A stretch of 64,000 nucleotides of DNA from Bradyrhizobium vignae (GTDB taxonomy: Bacteria > Pseudomonadota > Alphaproteobacteria > Rhizobiales > Xanthobacteraceae). This document shows positions 65-5,587 of the stretch, piece after piece; position 1 is the first letter of the stretch, and every line of letters starts with the position of its first letter. The DNA is taken from NCBI RefSeq assembly GCF_004114425.1, contig NZ_RDQF01000022.1, positions 1-64,000 of the forward strand, given 5' to 3'. The notes beneath the pieces are model-generated. The model did no database searches. It was not told where the DNA came from and saw only the letters and a list, made by a program, of their open reading frames with translations. The position numbers and the translations under genes are program-made.

Positions 65-180
65 ATGGCGACGATTCAGCCTTCGTTTGCGAACGCGGCT
101 GAGTTCTTCAACAGCCTGCTAGATGAGGTTGAGGAGTTTTTTACTGGGTCGCGATCGGCCGCCGAAGCATCGCGTCCTCG
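65..180 (+). pseudogene. Frameshifted 5' remnant of a hydrolase-cyclase fusion
   Basis: This frame encodes a segment ending in LLDEVEEFFTG. It resembles the linker that joins an alpha/beta hydrolase domain to a class III cyclase domain in known fusion proteins. The cyclase that should follow is in another frame (start 123). The shift lies at or just after a run of six T at 137-142. A stop in this frame at 20-22 cuts off anything further upstream. I read it as decay of a longer fusion gene or a sequencing indel. The hydrolase domain itself is not in the window. Confidence 0.45.
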
Positions 181-650
181 CCACTGTTCTGTTTACCGAT
201 ATTGTGAACTCAACCAAACGCGCGGAGAAGATCGGCGACCGCGCATGGCACGACCTGCTGGGTCACCACAATGCGATCGTGCGACGAGAACTGTTGCGGC
301 ATCGCGGCCGTGAAGTGAGGACATTGGGTGATGGGTTCTTAGCAACTTTCGACGGTCCGGCCCGATCGATCCGGTGCGCTCTTGCAATAAATGAAAGCGT
401 CGAACCGCTCGGGTTGCAGGTGAGGGCCGGCCTTCACACGGGCGAGATTGAAGTTGCCGATGACGATGTCAGCGGAATCGCCGTGCACATCGCATCGCGC
501 GTTGCGACGATGGCGAAGCCCGGACAGGTTTTGGTCTCGAATACCGTCCGTGACCTGGTGGCAGGATCAAACATTCGGTTCCATGACGAAGGTCATCATT
601 CTCTAAAGGGCATTACTAATAGCGTCAGATTATTCGCGGTTGAACGGTAG
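123..650 (+). CDS. Class III adenylate/guanylate cyclase domain protein, probably a fragment
   Basis: This 175-residue product is almost only a class III nucleotide cyclase catalytic domain, which makes cAMP or cGMP from the nucleoside triphosphate. Both metal-binding Asp are visible, in LFTDIVNST near residue 24 and in TLGDGFLATF near residue 62. An Arg (IASRVA) sits where the transition-state Arg is expected. The usual Asn in that motif is His here, as in other hydrolase-linked cyclases. No Shine-Dalgarno precedes the ATG. The upstream frame carries what looks like the missing linker, so this is probably the 3' part of a frameshifted gene rather than a free-standing cyclase. Confidence 0.7.
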   Translation: MRLRSFLLGRDRPPKHRVLATVLFTDIVNSTKRAEKIGDRAWHDLLGHHNAIVRRELLRHRGREVRTLGDGFLATFDGPARSIRCALAINESVEPLGLQVRAGLHTGEIEVADDDVSGIAVHIASRVATMAKPGQVLVSNTVRDLVAGSNIRFHDEGHHSLKGITNSVRLFAVER

Positions 651-1049: not shown

Positions 1050-4000
1050 GTGGCACGCCGGCATCACAGCTCGATTGGTTCAGGTTTGAGCGATACTGCG
1101 CCATTCAGGCCGCTGGACGCCCGATCTATCGCGAGCCCCCTAATTTTTGGGCAGAATAGCACGATCGTCCACGCGGGCAGAGGGGGGCGTGATTCGGCTG
1201 GAGATGGAAGGCCAACAGCCTCGTCCCCGATAAATCGCCGGAGGCATTTGCGGAATCTAGCGACCGAACGAAAATATGTCTCCATCTTGCGAGCCGATCT
1301 GCACCGCTCATCGGATCTGGTGACAGGCCTCGATTTAGAAGAGTCGATCGCGCGGCTCGCGCCGGCAATGGGTCAGATGCGATCGGCTGTGCATCAGTAC
1401 GGGGGCATTATTCATCGAGAAATGGGTGATGGCATATTCGCCGTGTTCGGTGCGCCGGTCGCCAACGACATGCACGCGGTCCTGGCTTGCCTCGCTGCGC
1501 TCGACCTTCTGAGCCGGATTGAAGCGCTTGCGGATGGTAGCATTCGCGTGCGGGTTGGCGTGCACTCAGGCTTGGTAGTGGCCGGACCCCGGAAGCTCGA
1601 CTACACCCAGATGTACGATTTTGACGGCCCTCCACTGATCATGGCTGAGCGCTTGCAAGCGGTGGCGGAGCCTGGCCAGGCGCTGGCGTCCGAGACGTGC
1701 TGGATGCTGGCCGGAGGCTATATCCATTTCGAAGCACCGGAAAGGCACCTTCTAAAGGGATTTGCCCAGCCAGTCATGGTTCATCCCATAAAAAGGGTTG
1801 GTGAGCTATCGAAATGGCAAGTGACCCTGGGGCGAGGTACAGCAGCATTCGTCGGTCGCGAGACGGAATTATCAAACTTACTTGCGCTTGGTGTCGCGGC
1901 TGCGAATGGCCCCGGTCGCGTTGCCCTTGTTTCGGGGGAACCGGGCGTGGGCAAGTCGCGCTTGGTGCGCGAGGCTGTGCACGTGCTGCATCAGCGCGGC
2001 TGGCATTCCGTGGAGGCGGAATGTAGCCCCATCATTGGCGATTCGCCGTTTTCCCTCCTCAAGGATATCCTGGTCAAATCTATTTCGGAGCTAAGTGGGG
2101 CTGATAAAGCGGGCGCCAACACCGACCTGCCAGATGTACAATCGGCTGCGCTGCGGATTCTGCTCGATGGAGTAGTTGCAGAAAGCCTTCCCGTATGGAC
2201 AAAGCTAGCCTCCCGCGCGCGAACTCGTGCCATCATCGATATGGCTTGTTCGGTCGTGGCCCGTCGGGTTGGTGGGCAGCCGACATTGCTTCTCATTGAG
2301 GATGCGCAATGGGCTGATGAGGCAAGCGCCCCCGCCCTTGACGCAATAGTGGCGTTGGCCAAGCGTCTTCCACTTTTCGTGTTAATCACTGCTCGAACAG
2401 ATGAGCTGCCCTCTTGGTGTGAGCCGGATGCCAGACTGGTACTAGCCCCACTAGCGCCCGATGAAGGCCTTGCAATGCTTAATCAGTTGCTTGGTCCATC
2501 GCCTCGCCTTCAGCTTTTAAAGGAACGAATTCTAGAGCACACGGGTGCGATGCCGTTGTTCCTAGAGGAAGTGTGTCGTGGGCTTATAGAAGCCGGTCGA
2601 TTAAGGGGAGCGTGGGGTGAATTTGAGCCGGCCTTAGAGGGGACAGAGCTCGGCGTTCCTTTGACAGTTCAAGGTGTGATCGCGAGTCGCATTGATCGAC
2701 TGGCCCCGCGCGAGAAGCGGGTCTTGCAAGTAGCCGCCTCGATCGGTCCTCAAGTGCCAAGCCGTTTACTCCGGGTGATCGCAGGTTTGGAGGAGGCGGT
2801 CTTCCGTCAAATCCATACCGCACTACTGGCGGCGGGTATGTTGGTGTGCGTCCCGCAGGCGGGAGAGGGGCAAAACACGTTCCCGCACGAATGCGTTCGC
2901 CAGGTTGCATACGATGCCACCCTGGAATCCGATAGGGTGAAACTACACAAGCGTGTTCTGACCGAGCTCGAGGCCGAGGCGGCTACTGCTCAGAACGCGC
3001 ACGAGTTGGCAGCCATAATGGTGCACCACGCTGTTCAAGCCAAGGAATGGGCGCGTGCAGCCGATTTGGGGGCAACGATCGCGCGTCGCTGCTTTGGCCA
3101 ATCTGCGTTTTCGGATGCGATGAAGCATTTCGAACTGGCAATAGCGTCGGTCGACAAGCTGCCGCCGTCACCGCAACGTGAGGCAATCGCGATTGATCTT
3201 AGGATTGAGGCGCGAATGGCTTACGGAAATCTAGGAAAGGTGAGCCGTTGGCTCGACTTGGCAAGAGAGGCCGAGGCGCGCGCACTCGCCTCCGGCGACA
3301 ATAGACGACGAATTCCTGCGTTGGCCATGCGTGCGGCGGCGTTGAACTTCTATGGTGCGCCGGCCGAAGCGCTCGACGCGGGCGAGGCTGCAGTGCGCGA
3401 AGCAGGCCAGAGCGGCGAGCCTGGATGGTTGGCCTATGCGGAATACGGGTTGGGGCAGGCGCGGTTTATCGCCGGTCACTTCGTAAAGGCCGTAGAGATT
3501 TTGGAGAGAGCTTATAAGCGGTTTTATTTTGAAGGTGCTTCACCGCCACCCGGCGGCGGAGCAGCACAAGCTGCACTGCTTAGCTGTATGATGATCTGCG
3601 TCAGTAAAGTAGCGCTTGGGGACGAAGAGGGCGCTGTCGCGGCGCAAGCACGAGCAGATGAGATTGCGGCTCAGAATGAAGGTCCCGCTGCAGCGATAGC
3701 AGGGGGATTTAGCCGCGGAGTGCTTTTGCTCTCAAGAGATGAGCCGCAGGCGGCGGAAACGGCGCTGGCACACTCCCTCAAGCTTGCGCATCAGCATGAA
3801 GTGCACCTTTTCATACCCGTGCTTGCCAACCAGCATGGGCTTTCACTCTTGCGAGTAGGGCGCGTGACAGAAGCGCGAACGGCGTTTGAAATGGCCCGTG
3901 AAGAGGCCGAACTGCTTGGGCATCGGTCGGCTGCATTGCGCGCAGAGCTAGGTCTAGCGCTCTGTGAGGCAGCATCGACAACCCAACGCAACGTAGCAAT

Positions 4001-4229
4001 AGAGATGGTTTGCCGATGTGAGCAGAGCGCTCAACAGAGCGGGTACCAACCCCTAGAGCTGGAAGCGTTGCTCATCAAGAGTGCTTTAAATAGCGCATTG
4101 GGAGTGGAGTCTTCGGCGGACCGAAACAAAGCCGAGCAAATAGCAAAGCAAATCGGCGCCCTAGGAACGCAGCGCGAAGTTCATCGCACGCTTTCAAGGG
4201 TGCTGGATCGTTCACAGCTGGCGAGCTAA
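1050..4229 (+). CDS. Cyclase-AAA ATPase-TPR signalling protein
   Basis: A 1059-residue multidomain protein. Residues about 75-250 form a class III cyclase-like domain with both metal Asp (SILRADLH and MGDGIFAVFG). Residues about 275-560 form an AAA/STAND-like ATPase with Walker A GEPGVGKS near residue 297 and Walker B LLLIEDAQWAD. The C-terminal 450 residues are Ala-rich helical repeats of TPR type, likely for protein contacts. The GTG start is set by GGCGAGGAGGG eight bases upstream. The transition-state Asn of the cyclase is replaced (LIMAERL) and the adenine-selecting Lys position is Arg, so cyclase activity is uncertain. No signal peptide or membrane segment is seen, so it is cytoplasmic. 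It is 14 bases from the next gene and probably cotranscribed with it. Confidence 0.85.
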   Translation: MARRHHSSIGSGLSDTAPFRPLDARSIASPLIFGQNSTIVHAGRGGRDSAGDGRPTASSPINRRRHLRNLATERKYVSILRADLHRSSDLVTGLDLEESIARLAPAMGQMRSAVHQYGGIIHREMGDGIFAVFGAPVANDMHAVLACLAALDLLSRIEALADGSIRVRVGVHSGLVVAGPRKLDYTQMYDFDGPPLIMAERLQAVAEPGQALASETCWMLAGGYIHFEAPERHLLKGFAQPVMVHPIKRVGELSKWQVTLGRGTAAFVGRETELSNLLALGVAAANGPGRVALVSGEPGVGKSRLVREAVHVLHQRGWHSVEAECSPIIGDSPFSLLKDILVKSISELSGADKAGANTDLPDVQSAALRILLDGVVAESLPVWTKLASRARTRAIIDMACSVVARRVGGQPTLLLIEDAQWADEASAPALDAIVALAKRLPLFVLITARTDELPSWCEPDARLVLAPLAPDEGLAMLNQLLGPSPRLQLLKERILEHTGAMPLFLEEVCRGLIEAGRLRGAWGEFEPALEGTELGVPLTVQGVIASRIDRLAPREKRVLQVAASIGPQVPSRLLRVIAGLEEAVFRQIHTALLAAGMLVCVPQAGEGQNTFPHECVRQVAYDATLESDRVKLHKRVLTELEAEAATAQNAHELAAIMVHHAVQAKEWARAADLGATIARRCFGQSAFSDAMKHFELAIASVDKLPPSPQREAIAIDLRIEARMAYGNLGKVSRWLDLAREAEARALASGDNRRRIPALAMRAAALNFYGAPAEALDAGEAAVREAGQSGEPGWLAYAEYGLGQARFIAGHFVKAVEILERAYKRFYFEGASPPPGGGAAQAALLSCMMICVSKVALGDEEGAVAAQARADEIAAQNEGPAAAIAGGFSRGVLLLSRDEPQAAETALAHSLKLAHQHEVHLFIPVLANQHGLSLLRVGRVTEARTAFEMAREEAELLGHRSAALRAELGLALCEAASTTQRNVAIEMVCRCEQSAQQSGYQPLELEALLIKSALNSALGVESSADRNKAEQIAKQIGALGTQREVHRTLSRVLDRSQLAS

Positions 4230-4243
4230 CAAGGAGGAACGTC

Positions 4244-5587
4244 ATGTCTGAAGAAGAAGACGGCAGGACCGAGAAGCAAGACACGCTCAATCGGCGTACC
4301 GTGCTAGCGGGTGGCGTTGCAACCGCGGCGACGGCCGCTCTCCCGCGGGCGGCGCTCGCTCAGCCGAAGGGTGCTGGCGGAATAGAAACCCGTGGCGCAA
4401 TTTACATGGACCCCGATTATCTATCGACATTCAACGATCACGCCTACTCGCGGGGCAATATCGGTAATGTTCACAATCTAATTAAGAACAATTTCCTGAA
4501 CAGAAGTGATCTTAAGTGGGGACTTTATCAACGCGACGTGGAGCCGGATCCTAAAAAGTGGGGCCGTACACCGCAAATTGGACAGGCCGCGTTCGACCAT
4601 TGGCCCGACTTCTCTCAGGAAGCTCGTGATGACCTGGAGAAGCAGCCGGCGAGGTTTGCTGATCCGAAGAACGCAATGAACCCGTTCGACACCAGGCAAG
4701 TGGGCGCCAATCTGTTGGAGCATTTAGATGAGGTTATTCGCATTGCGCTGTGGGACTACGCAGTACCGATAAAGATCAAAGTGAATAAGAGTCGCAGACG
4801 GCATCACGGTCTTACAACCGAATGGGACCCTGCGCCGCAGCCCGGAACTAATCCAAACCTTCGATTGAATGGGCTGACCATCAACATCGATTGTCCCGAC
4901 GGCGGATGGCAGGGTTACACGCTCTGGCGCAACAGATCTACGAGCGACCACATTACGAAATTCGAAGCCAATTGGGTGGTGCCCTCGCCACCAACGAACG
5001 ATGAAGGGCAGATCATATTCATCTTCAATGGTCTGGAGAGCGTATCGGGACCAAATGCAACGGGAGGAATCTTACAGCCGGTCCTCCAGTGGACCACCAA
5101 TGGTTGGTTCATCCGGAGCTGGTACGTGAGTGCTGATTTCGACCCTATGAAGTACCCGAACCTGCCTGATCCAGGCTCGGCGGTCGGCCAAGATCACCTG
5201 AGTGACGAGAACCGCTGTTACTCTAAGGCAATCCCAGTCACGACAGGAGATATAATTACCGGCTCTATTGAGGGCGGCAGAGATACTGGCGGAAAGTTCA
5301 ACTATGTCTGCTCGCTTTCGCGTAACAATCAAATTCAGTCGGACACCAGACTGAAAATGGACGATATATCTGAGCTGACTTACGCCGTGTGTGCTGTCGA
5401 AAGTTACAAAGTAACCGTCACCCCTGCGGACTACCCCACGGCACCGATCGTATTAACCTCCCTCGACTTGCAACTTGAAAACAATCCCATCAGCCCAATC
5501 CAGTGGACGGAAAGCAAAAAGGCCGGCAGGGACTTCACCGCAAAGTCGTCTATGGCGGGACACAAGGTGGAGTTTAAGGTAGTCTGA
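4244..5587 (+). CDS. Tat-exported protein with G1 (eqolisin)-like domain, function unknown
   Basis: A 447-residue product with a clear AAGGAGG site before its ATG. The N-terminus has a twin-arginine signal (NRRTVLAGG, hydrophobic stretch, AALA cleavage), so it is probably exported folded. Residues about 235-370 follow the pattern of G1 glutamic peptidases: an edge strand TKFEANWVVPSPP, a GLE turn, ILQPVLQW, SWYV, then a TTGDIITGSI strand. The position of the catalytic Glu in the WYEWYP motif reads Val, and no matching catalytic Gln is obvious, so peptidase activity is doubtful. Residues 45-230 match nothing I recognise. The gene follows the cyclase-ATPase by 14 bases. The fold assignment is inference by eye. 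Confidence 0.7.
   Translation: MSEEEDGRTEKQDTLNRRTVLAGGVATAATAALPRAALAQPKGAGGIETRGAIYMDPDYLSTFNDHAYSRGNIGNVHNLIKNNFLNRSDLKWGLYQRDVEPDPKKWGRTPQIGQAAFDHWPDFSQEARDDLEKQPARFADPKNAMNPFDTRQVGANLLEHLDEVIRIALWDYAVPIKIKVNKSRRRHHGLTTEWDPAPQPGTNPNLRLNGLTINIDCPDGGWQGYTLWRNRSTSDHITKFEANWVVPSPPTNDEGQIIFIFNGLESVSGPNATGGILQPVLQWTTNGWFIRSWYVSADFDPMKYPNLPDPGSAVGQDHLSDENRCYSKAIPVTTGDIITGSIEGGRDTGGKFNYVCSLSRNNQIQSDTRLKMDDISELTYAVCAVESYKVTVTPADYPTAPIVLTSLDLQLENNPISPIQWTESKKAGRDFTAKSSMAGHKVEFKVV

What the first reader, a model, noticed from the sequence alone, without database searches (positions are those of the whole stretch)
4244..5587. Eqolisin-like exported protein without the catalytic glutamate
The strand order (KFEANWVVPSPP, GLE, ILQPVLQW, SWYV, TTGDIITGS) follows G1 glutamic peptidases, but the Glu of the WYEWYP motif is Val and no catalytic Gln is clear. 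It could be a binding protein derived from a peptidase, with a novel 190-residue N-terminal domain.
Basis: partly seen in the sequence, partly recalled or inferred. Interest (0 to 1): 0.55.

Follow-up and report, generated by a model that had tools for sequence, protein, structure and literature searches.

The report
Cyclase-partner protein with glutamic-peptidase-like domain
A soil bacterium's probably exported protein joins a module that sits beside a particular signalling enzyme in nearly every related locus checked to a second module resembling a rare class of acid proteases; that second module still has both candidate active-site residues instead of having lost one.

Summary
The ORF is real: Bradyrhizobium, 4244-5587 +, 447 aa, strong Shine-Dalgarno, 14 nt behind a cyclase-ATPase-TPR gene. 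It has three parts.

(1) A Tat-like signal.

(2) An N-module (about residues 50-217) that is not unique to it. 116 of 265 Bradyrhizobium genomes carry it, mostly as a 160-210 aa protein, and at 117 of 119 loci it lies beside the same type of cyclase-AAA-TPR (STAND-like) protein.

(3) A C-module (about 218-447), aligned here with seven relatives, including a lectin-fused Bradyrhizobium protein and a haloarchaeal Tat protein.

The C-module follows G1 glutamic peptidases in motif order, but only weakly by profile. 'Without the catalytic glutamate' does not hold. The Glu of WYEWYP is a support residue. The catalytic pair is Gln (ILQ strand) and Glu (IVE strand), and both candidates, Gln278 and Glu386, are invariant in all eight aligned members. 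Glu386 is the only always-acidic column.

The support Glu is Val295, the Pfam cut-off is missed, and no confident structure could be made (pLDDT 32 and 40). So it is 'G1-like with an apparent dyad', not a certified G1 peptidase. The unexpected result is a fused partner of a cyclase whose substrate-site residues differ in exactly the 6 of 110 compared cyclases with a fused partner.

The parts
1050..4229 (+). Class III cyclase-like domain + AAA_16 ATPase + TPR protein (1059 aa), the constant neighbour of the N-module
   Evidence: Guanylate_cyc 5.5e-11, AAA_16 1.2e-20, TPR_12 0.0025 below its cut-off; NCBIfam TIGR03903 E 2.3e-66, 224.5 bits, below its 705.75 cut-off
4231..4237 (+). Shine-Dalgarno AAGGAGG, 6 nt before the ATG
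   Evidence: sequence read
4244..5587 (+). Two-module protein, 447 aa
   Evidence: 96% relative in B. frederickii
4244..4363 (+). Tat-type signal peptide, RR at residues 17-18, AxA-type end near residue 39
   Evidence: PF10518 E=0.0027, below cut-off; RR invariant in the four sequences
4391..4894 (+). N-module (about residues 50-217), partner domain of the cyclase-AAA-TPR family, ends at the CysPro seen at the end of stand-alone homologues
4895..5584 (+). C-module (about residues 218-447), all-beta tendency, G1-like
5075..5077 (+). Gln278, candidate catalytic Gln (ILQPVLQW)
   Evidence: invariant in 8 of 8 aligned members
5120..5128 (+). Trp293-Tyr294-Val295: counterpart of Trp67-Tyr68-Glu69 of SGP; the support Glu is Val
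   Evidence: roles of W67/E69 from PMC6154417
5399..5401 (+). Glu386, candidate catalytic Glu (CAVESY), the only column acidic in all eight aligned members
   Evidence: AGP Glu110 lies in EWIVED

Best explanation
The protein is a probably exported partner of a cyclase-AAA-TPR (STAND-like) signalling protein, made by fusing two modules that also exist alone. The N-module (shown: next to this cyclase type at 117 of 119 loci) most likely binds or is controlled by the cyclase-STAND protein (inferred). The C-module (shown: a separate domain family with invariant Gln278 and Glu386) most likely folds as a G1-type beta-sandwich and uses the Gln/Glu pair on a peptide or glycopeptide outside the cytoplasm (inferred). 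In the fused lineage the gene gained the C-module and, in five of six members, a Tat-like signal. The likely circuit: the STAND protein senses a ligand, and its ATPase/cyclase switch couples that to the N-module protein. In this lineage the output is delivered to the cell surface as an acid-peptidase-like or ligand-binding effector. Whether the pair is catalytic is open; I put activity at about even odds if the fold is G1.
For: Linkage: 117 of 119 loci, counting the window and counting G021 once; one exception is a 4.5 kb contig. 14 nt gap and strong SD. Fused proteins form one clade in a quick tree, support 99. Of 110 compared cyclases, all 6 with a fused partner carry R123/D192/I197 and all 104 others K/G/H. 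C-module: 12 invariant columns in eight members including Gln278, Gln282, Glu386; two further copies read by eye, L082 and L081, also keep QPVLQW and LEAY/LEYY. Gln-Glu spacing is 87-113 in the family, 86 in AGP, and 95-109 in the seven Bradyrhizobium G1 proteins printed. PF01828 sub-threshold hits in 3 of 8 members. The Halocatena relative aligns Q-Q, W-W, GD-GD to a local G1 model.
Against: G1 relationship is statistically weak: hhalign P=0.14 and 0.08, and 0.86 in global mode. The window's own C-module hits no Pfam family; against the local G1 model it scores 0.5, below the shuffles' 95th percentile of 1.4, and aligns out of register, and the best shuffled copy (10.2) beats the best real one (6.8). 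On one relative three other Pfam families score better than PF01828. The C-module profile does not report the genome's real G1 peptidase. Support residues Glu69 and Gly55 are not kept, and the Trp67 position is Phe or Leu in some C-only copies. Models have pLDDT 32 and 40. One fused member (G611) shows no Tat signal. Neighbourhood does not prove physical contact, and an exported protein would be separated from a cytoplasmic cyclase. The R/D/I split is one clade, so one event; the tree carries long-branch warnings.
Confidence: 0.5

Rival explanations
1. One reading: a G1-derived binding protein that has lost catalysis, used as an extracellular receptor or adhesin.
For: Val295 replaces the strictly conserved Glu69 and Val280 the Gly after the Gln; a relative fuses the C-module to beta-propeller lectin repeats; G1 peptidases resemble ConA-like lectins (PMC6154417, passage).
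Against: Glu386 and Gln278 are invariant in 8 of 8 aligned members and Glu386 is the only always-acidic column, which suits a working dyad better than a pure binder.
Confidence: 0.3
2. The C-module is an unrelated beta-rich family, for example a carbohydrate-binding or lyase-like jelly roll, and the motif order is convergence.
For: No significant profile match to G1; the top fold hits of the poor model include PL14 alginate lyases and galectins, meaningless at pLDDT 40.
Against: Collinear WxG, VP, GL(E/D), ILQ, WY, GD, VE motifs (by eye) and repeated weak PF01828 hits.
Confidence: 0.25
3. The cyclase gene and the N-module gene form an anti-phage system of the Pycsar type, with the two-module protein as effector.
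For: Cyclase domain matches PADLOC PycC models weakly, best 4.5e-6; two-gene unit of cyclase and partner.
Against: The two-module protein and two stand-alone N-module proteins match no PADLOC model; the effector would be Tat-exported; no cyclic-nucleotide-binding or TIR domain found by Pfam. Other neighbours were not scanned with PADLOC.
Confidence: 0.08

Closest known systems
Peptidase family G1 (eqolisins; Pfam PF01828 Peptidase_A4), SGP and AGP
   Same: Motif order; Gln in the ILQ strand; Glu in the hydrophobic-Glu strand; Gln-Glu spacing in the range of bacterial G1 proteins; Trp next to the site
   Different: Below the Pfam cut-off; support Glu69 is Val; Gly after the Gln is Val; WVGIDG is FNGLES; Gln-Glu spacing is 100-113 in the fused proteins against 87-92 in the C-only ones
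NCBIfam TIGR03903, TOMM system kinase/cyclase fusion protein (compared with the neighbouring gene)
   Same: Cyclase-ATPase-repeat part aligned over model positions 328-1044
   Different: No kinase domain found; 224.5 bits against a 705.75 cut-off; TOMM genes were not looked for
CV39L-type beta-propeller lectin fusion with the same C-module, Bradyrhizobium G598 (L079)
   Same: C-module with ILQPVLQW, SWFV, VLECY
   Different: No N-module seen; lectin repeats follow (NF052348 8.4e-51, 173 of 200 bits; NF052350 3.2e-53, 181 of 350 bits)
Halocatena salina plasmid protein WP_247995495.1
   Same: Tat-type signal and the C-module with IIQPVLQW, SWYG, TLESF
   Different: No N-module seen, haloarchaeal, annotated hypothetical

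Membership tests
Peptidase family G1 / PF01828 | Score above the family's curated cut-off | tested here: not met
   Window C-module: no hit; best relative 16.8 of 22.3 bits
Peptidase family G1 / PF01828 | Catalytic Gln in the ILQ strand | tested here: met
   Gln278, 8 of 8 aligned members; Halocatena aligned Q to Q by a local G1 model
Peptidase family G1 / PF01828 | Catalytic Glu in the (I/V)(V/M)E strand | tested here: inconclusive
   Glu386 invariant, motif AVESY against IVEDF, spacing in range; no automatic alignment to G1 reached this strand, so the equivalence was set by eye
Peptidase family G1 / PF01828 | Support Glu69 of WYEWYP | tested here: not met
   Val295; Val in 7 and Gly in 1 of 8 aligned members
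Peptidase family G1 / PF01828 | Two seven-stranded antiparallel sheets in a beta-sandwich | tested here: inconclusive
   All-beta tendency in models of pLDDT 32 and 40 only
Peptidase family G1 / PF01828 | Pepstatin-insensitive peptidase activity at acidic pH | not testable with these tools
   needs protein
TIGR03903 TOMM kinase/cyclase (neighbour gene) | Score above cut-off, kinase domain | tested here: not met
   224.5 of 705.75 bits, model 328-1044 of 1267; no kinase
Pycsar | Pyrimidine cyclase plus cyclic-nucleotide-gated effector | tested here: not met
   PycC match weak (4.5e-6); no PADLOC match for the partner; cyclase product not testable here

The most novel reading that the evidence does not exclude
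A two-gene signalling unit in Bradyrhizobium in which a cyclase-STAND protein is paired with an exported effector carrying an active, divergent Gln/Glu glutamic peptidase that works without the Glu69 support residue. It arose by fusing the constant partner module to a peptidase-like module found elsewhere, with matching changes in the cyclase active site.
Probability: 0.25. Interest if true: 0.75.

Novelty: new variant of a known kind. Interest (0 to 1): 0.5.

Why it matters
It corrects a false 'missing catalytic glutamate' label and names two residues that can be tested. It also exposes two families for which the scanned libraries gave no model: a partner module tied to one cyclase-STAND type in 116 of 265 Bradyrhizobium genomes, and a G1-like domain shared by bacteria and a haloarchaeon. 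If the C-module is an active peptidase, the G1 active site tolerates loss of a residue described as strictly conserved.

Tried and rejected
Structure: two AlphaFold2 jobs with the only admissible relative (96%) gave pLDDT 32.2 and 40.1; one PDB fold search on the second gave no hit below E=0.037 and is not used as evidence. VIA-align and BFVD searches were not run, because the models are too poor. PDB sequence searches with the protein and with three related queries gave nothing relevant.

Rejected: five Rhizobiaceae-type hits to the C-module profile, short matches in proteins of another kind (they look like GH25 lysozymes by eye; no domain scan). I first took the first Glu of EWIVE as catalytic, from memory, which made the dyad look broken; searches show it is the second Glu. 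In the Bradyrhizobium G1 proteins the first one is not invariant (L018 has QWVME).

Nowhere: plasmids, phages and viral contigs, except one haloarchaeal plasmid. C-module profiles in 397 other sampled genomes of the phylum gave the five hits above and one marginal hit that I did not resolve (G871, E=0.009); 366 other sampled genomes of the class gave none. The N-module profile was searched only in the genus, so its wider spread is unknown. Paper searches. Judged from the listings, none is about this protein or the N-module. Passages were read in PMC6154417, PMC3009609 and PMC8147669; PMC2447327 gave only a reference-list line; of PMC4381067 only the outline with abstract was seen.

The careful tree did not finish; the quick tree is reported. 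One search stopped on an error after seven of eight Bradyrhizobium G1 rows, so L018's spacing was not printed; one search stopped after five. In one search I printed only + frames, so L081 and L082 were first missed and were read.

Full report
OBSERVATION. The ORF is 4244-5587 on the + strand, 447 aa. It starts 14 nt after the stop of the gene at 1050-4229, with AAGGAGG six bases before its ATG. The genome is taken as Bradyrhizobium because the closest named relative is B. frederickii, 96% identical over all 447 residues. The whole protein matches no Pfam, NCBIfam or PHROG family except a sub-threshold Tat signal and no relevant PDB chain.

RELATIVES AND MODULES. Searches of 197 relatives and then of 265 genomes of the genus gave five other two-module proteins: G106 (the B. 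frederickii contig, by its length and identity), G112, G104, G613 and G611. C-module identity to the window is 63, 46, 61 and 36% for G112, G104, G613 and G611 and 98% for B. frederickii. The N-module and the C-module each exist alone. The fusion point looks sharp by eye: the stand-alone N-modules printed end near LTMVCP, and the fused proteins continue from the same CP into the GGW that opens C-only copies.

N-MODULE. A profile of four N-modules (A3) finds matches in 116 of 265 Bradyrhizobium genomes, mostly as 160-210 aa proteins. All loci listed there were fetched and scanned. Of 119 fetched loci, 117 also hold an ORF matching the window's cyclase-AAA-TPR protein at E<1e-30. One genome (G021) was fetched twice, so this is 116 of 118 distinct loci, or 117 of 119 with the window. 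The two exceptions are G016 (a 4.5 kb contig with the N-module at its end) and G596. Of 133 linked N-module ORFs (two being the G021 duplicate), 126 are transcribed divergently from the cyclase gene, 6 follow it on the same strand and one lies otherwise. The linkage is specific: the window's genome has eight cyclase-AAA-like matches, and the best two (100% and 39%) are the two beside N-modules. Of three genomes not among the N-module matches, G002 and G009 hold only distant paralogues (at most 30%), whereas G001 holds a 42% match split over two frames.

CYCLASE RESIDUES. I compared 110 cyclases (the window plus 109 ORFs longer than 900 aa and above 400 bits; 8 of the 117 cyclase loci were dropped by that filter). 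Both metal-binding Asp, the Walker A Lys and the Walker B Asp are invariant (residue roles are recalled). Three substrate-site positions split exactly with the partner: Arg123/Asp192/Ile197 in the six with a two-module partner, Lys/Gly/His in the other 104. The fused proteins are one clade in a quick N-module tree (support 99, with long-branch warnings), so this is one event, not six. Neither group has the canonical transition-state Asn (recalled motif), so cyclase activity itself is unproven.

C-MODULE. Beyond the fused clade there are C-only relatives. L079 (G598) has lectin-type propeller repeats behind the C-module, L080 (G698) is C-only, and L087 is a 324-aa Tat-type protein on a Halocatena salina plasmid. 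The genus search with the C-module gave 13 of 265 genomes, six of them the fused proteins. An alignment of eight (A8: window, four other fused, L079, L080, L087) has twelve invariant columns: V246, P247, P250, F261, I276, Q278, V280, L281, Q282, W288, G340 and E386. E386 is the only column acidic in all eight. Left out of A8: the 98% identical B. frederickii copy; L081 and L082, which I read only afterwards and which also keep QPVLQW and LEYY/LEAY but have Leu or Phe at the Trp67 position; and copies with frame breaks or stops (L006, L007, L084, L085).

WHICH GLU IS CATALYTIC. In AGP the dyad is Gln B24 and Glu B110 (PMC8147669, passages). Numbering the chain printed puts Gln24 in AILQTG and Glu110 at the second Glu of EWIVED. 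In SGP it is Q53 and E136, while W67 positions Q53 with help from the strictly conserved E69 (PMC6154417, passages); by numbering this is the Glu of WYEWYP. Here W293 matches W67 and V295 matches E69. The candidates for the true dyad are Q278 and E386 (AVESY against IVEDF). Gln-Glu distances are 87-113 in the eight, 86 in AGP, and 95-109 in the seven Bradyrhizobium G1 proteins printed.

HOW STRONG IS THE G1 LINK. For: WxG, WxVP, GL(E/D), ILQ, WY, GD and VE come in the same order (by eye); PF01828 appears among sub-threshold hits for 3 of 8 members, best E 0.0048 and 16.8 bits against a 22.3 cut-off; against a local G1 model, 5 of 8 members score above the 95th percentile of shuffled copies (1.4 bits; 1685 reported of 2000 made), and the best, Halocatena at 6.8, aligns Q to Q and GD to GD. 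Against: the best shuffled copy scores 10.2; the window's own C-module scores 0.5 there, out of register, and has no Pfam hit; the eight are related, so the counts are not independent; hhalign gives P=0.14 and 0.08, and 0.86 in global mode; on G104 three other Pfam families beat PF01828; the A8 profile does not report the genome's true G1 peptidase; no automatic alignment to G1 reached the Glu strand. Models are unusable. I therefore call it G1-like and do not file it in G1.

MECHANISM. Shown: module architecture, linkage, a 14 nt gap to the cyclase gene, invariant Gln/Glu. Inferred: the N-module is a regulator or client of the cyclase-STAND protein, as near-complete linkage across two gene arrangements is best explained by joint function. 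STAND proteins are switched by ligand binding that opens the ATPase (PMC4381067, abstract). In the fused lineage the partner was given a further module. Tat export is supported by a twin-Arg signal in five of six fused proteins (three found by pattern; the window and G613 by eye; G611 lacks it) and by no match to that pattern among the 130 other N-module ORFs. Whether the C-module cuts or binds is open.

VERDICT. A real and somewhat unusual two-module protein. The 'missing catalytic glutamate' is wrong, the 'novel N-terminal domain' is a widespread unmodelled family, and the partner cyclase is the most solid new fact.

Noticed in passing
L079:1039-3246: Bradyrhizobium G598 protein of over 730 aa: the same C-module followed by CV39L/BP39L-type beta-propeller lectin repeats (NCBIfam hits below cut-off).
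   Followed up: partly
L056:8926-10386, L057:8573-9976, L058:8139-9542: In three genomes N-module genes flank a 467-486 aa gene; the L056 copy is a MATE transporter (PF01554 3e-32), L057 looks alike by sequence, L058 only by length.
   Followed up: partly
L006/L052/L083, L007/L053, L084, L085: C-module copies with frame breaks or stops; in L006 and L007 a similar lipoprotein-like gene precedes them (the L053 copy has no Pfam family).
   Followed up: partly
123..650 +: A second, stand-alone class III cyclase-like gene (Guanylate_cyc 8.6e-15) just upstream of the cyclase-AAA-TPR gene.
   Followed up: no
1050..4229 +: Cyclase domain has the two metal Asp but Ile where class III cyclases have the transition-state Asn (role recalled); the 104 compared cyclases beside stand-alone N-modules have His.
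   Followed up: partly
L169 (G596): The only long-contig N-module locus without a matching cyclase gene in the fetched stretch.
   Followed up: no
L010 (window genome, C124:145569-146156): The same genome carries one bona fide G1 peptidase gene (PF01828 88.8 bits) with PQIG and EWVME; 9 of 100 genomes searched, this one included, have one.
   Followed up: partly
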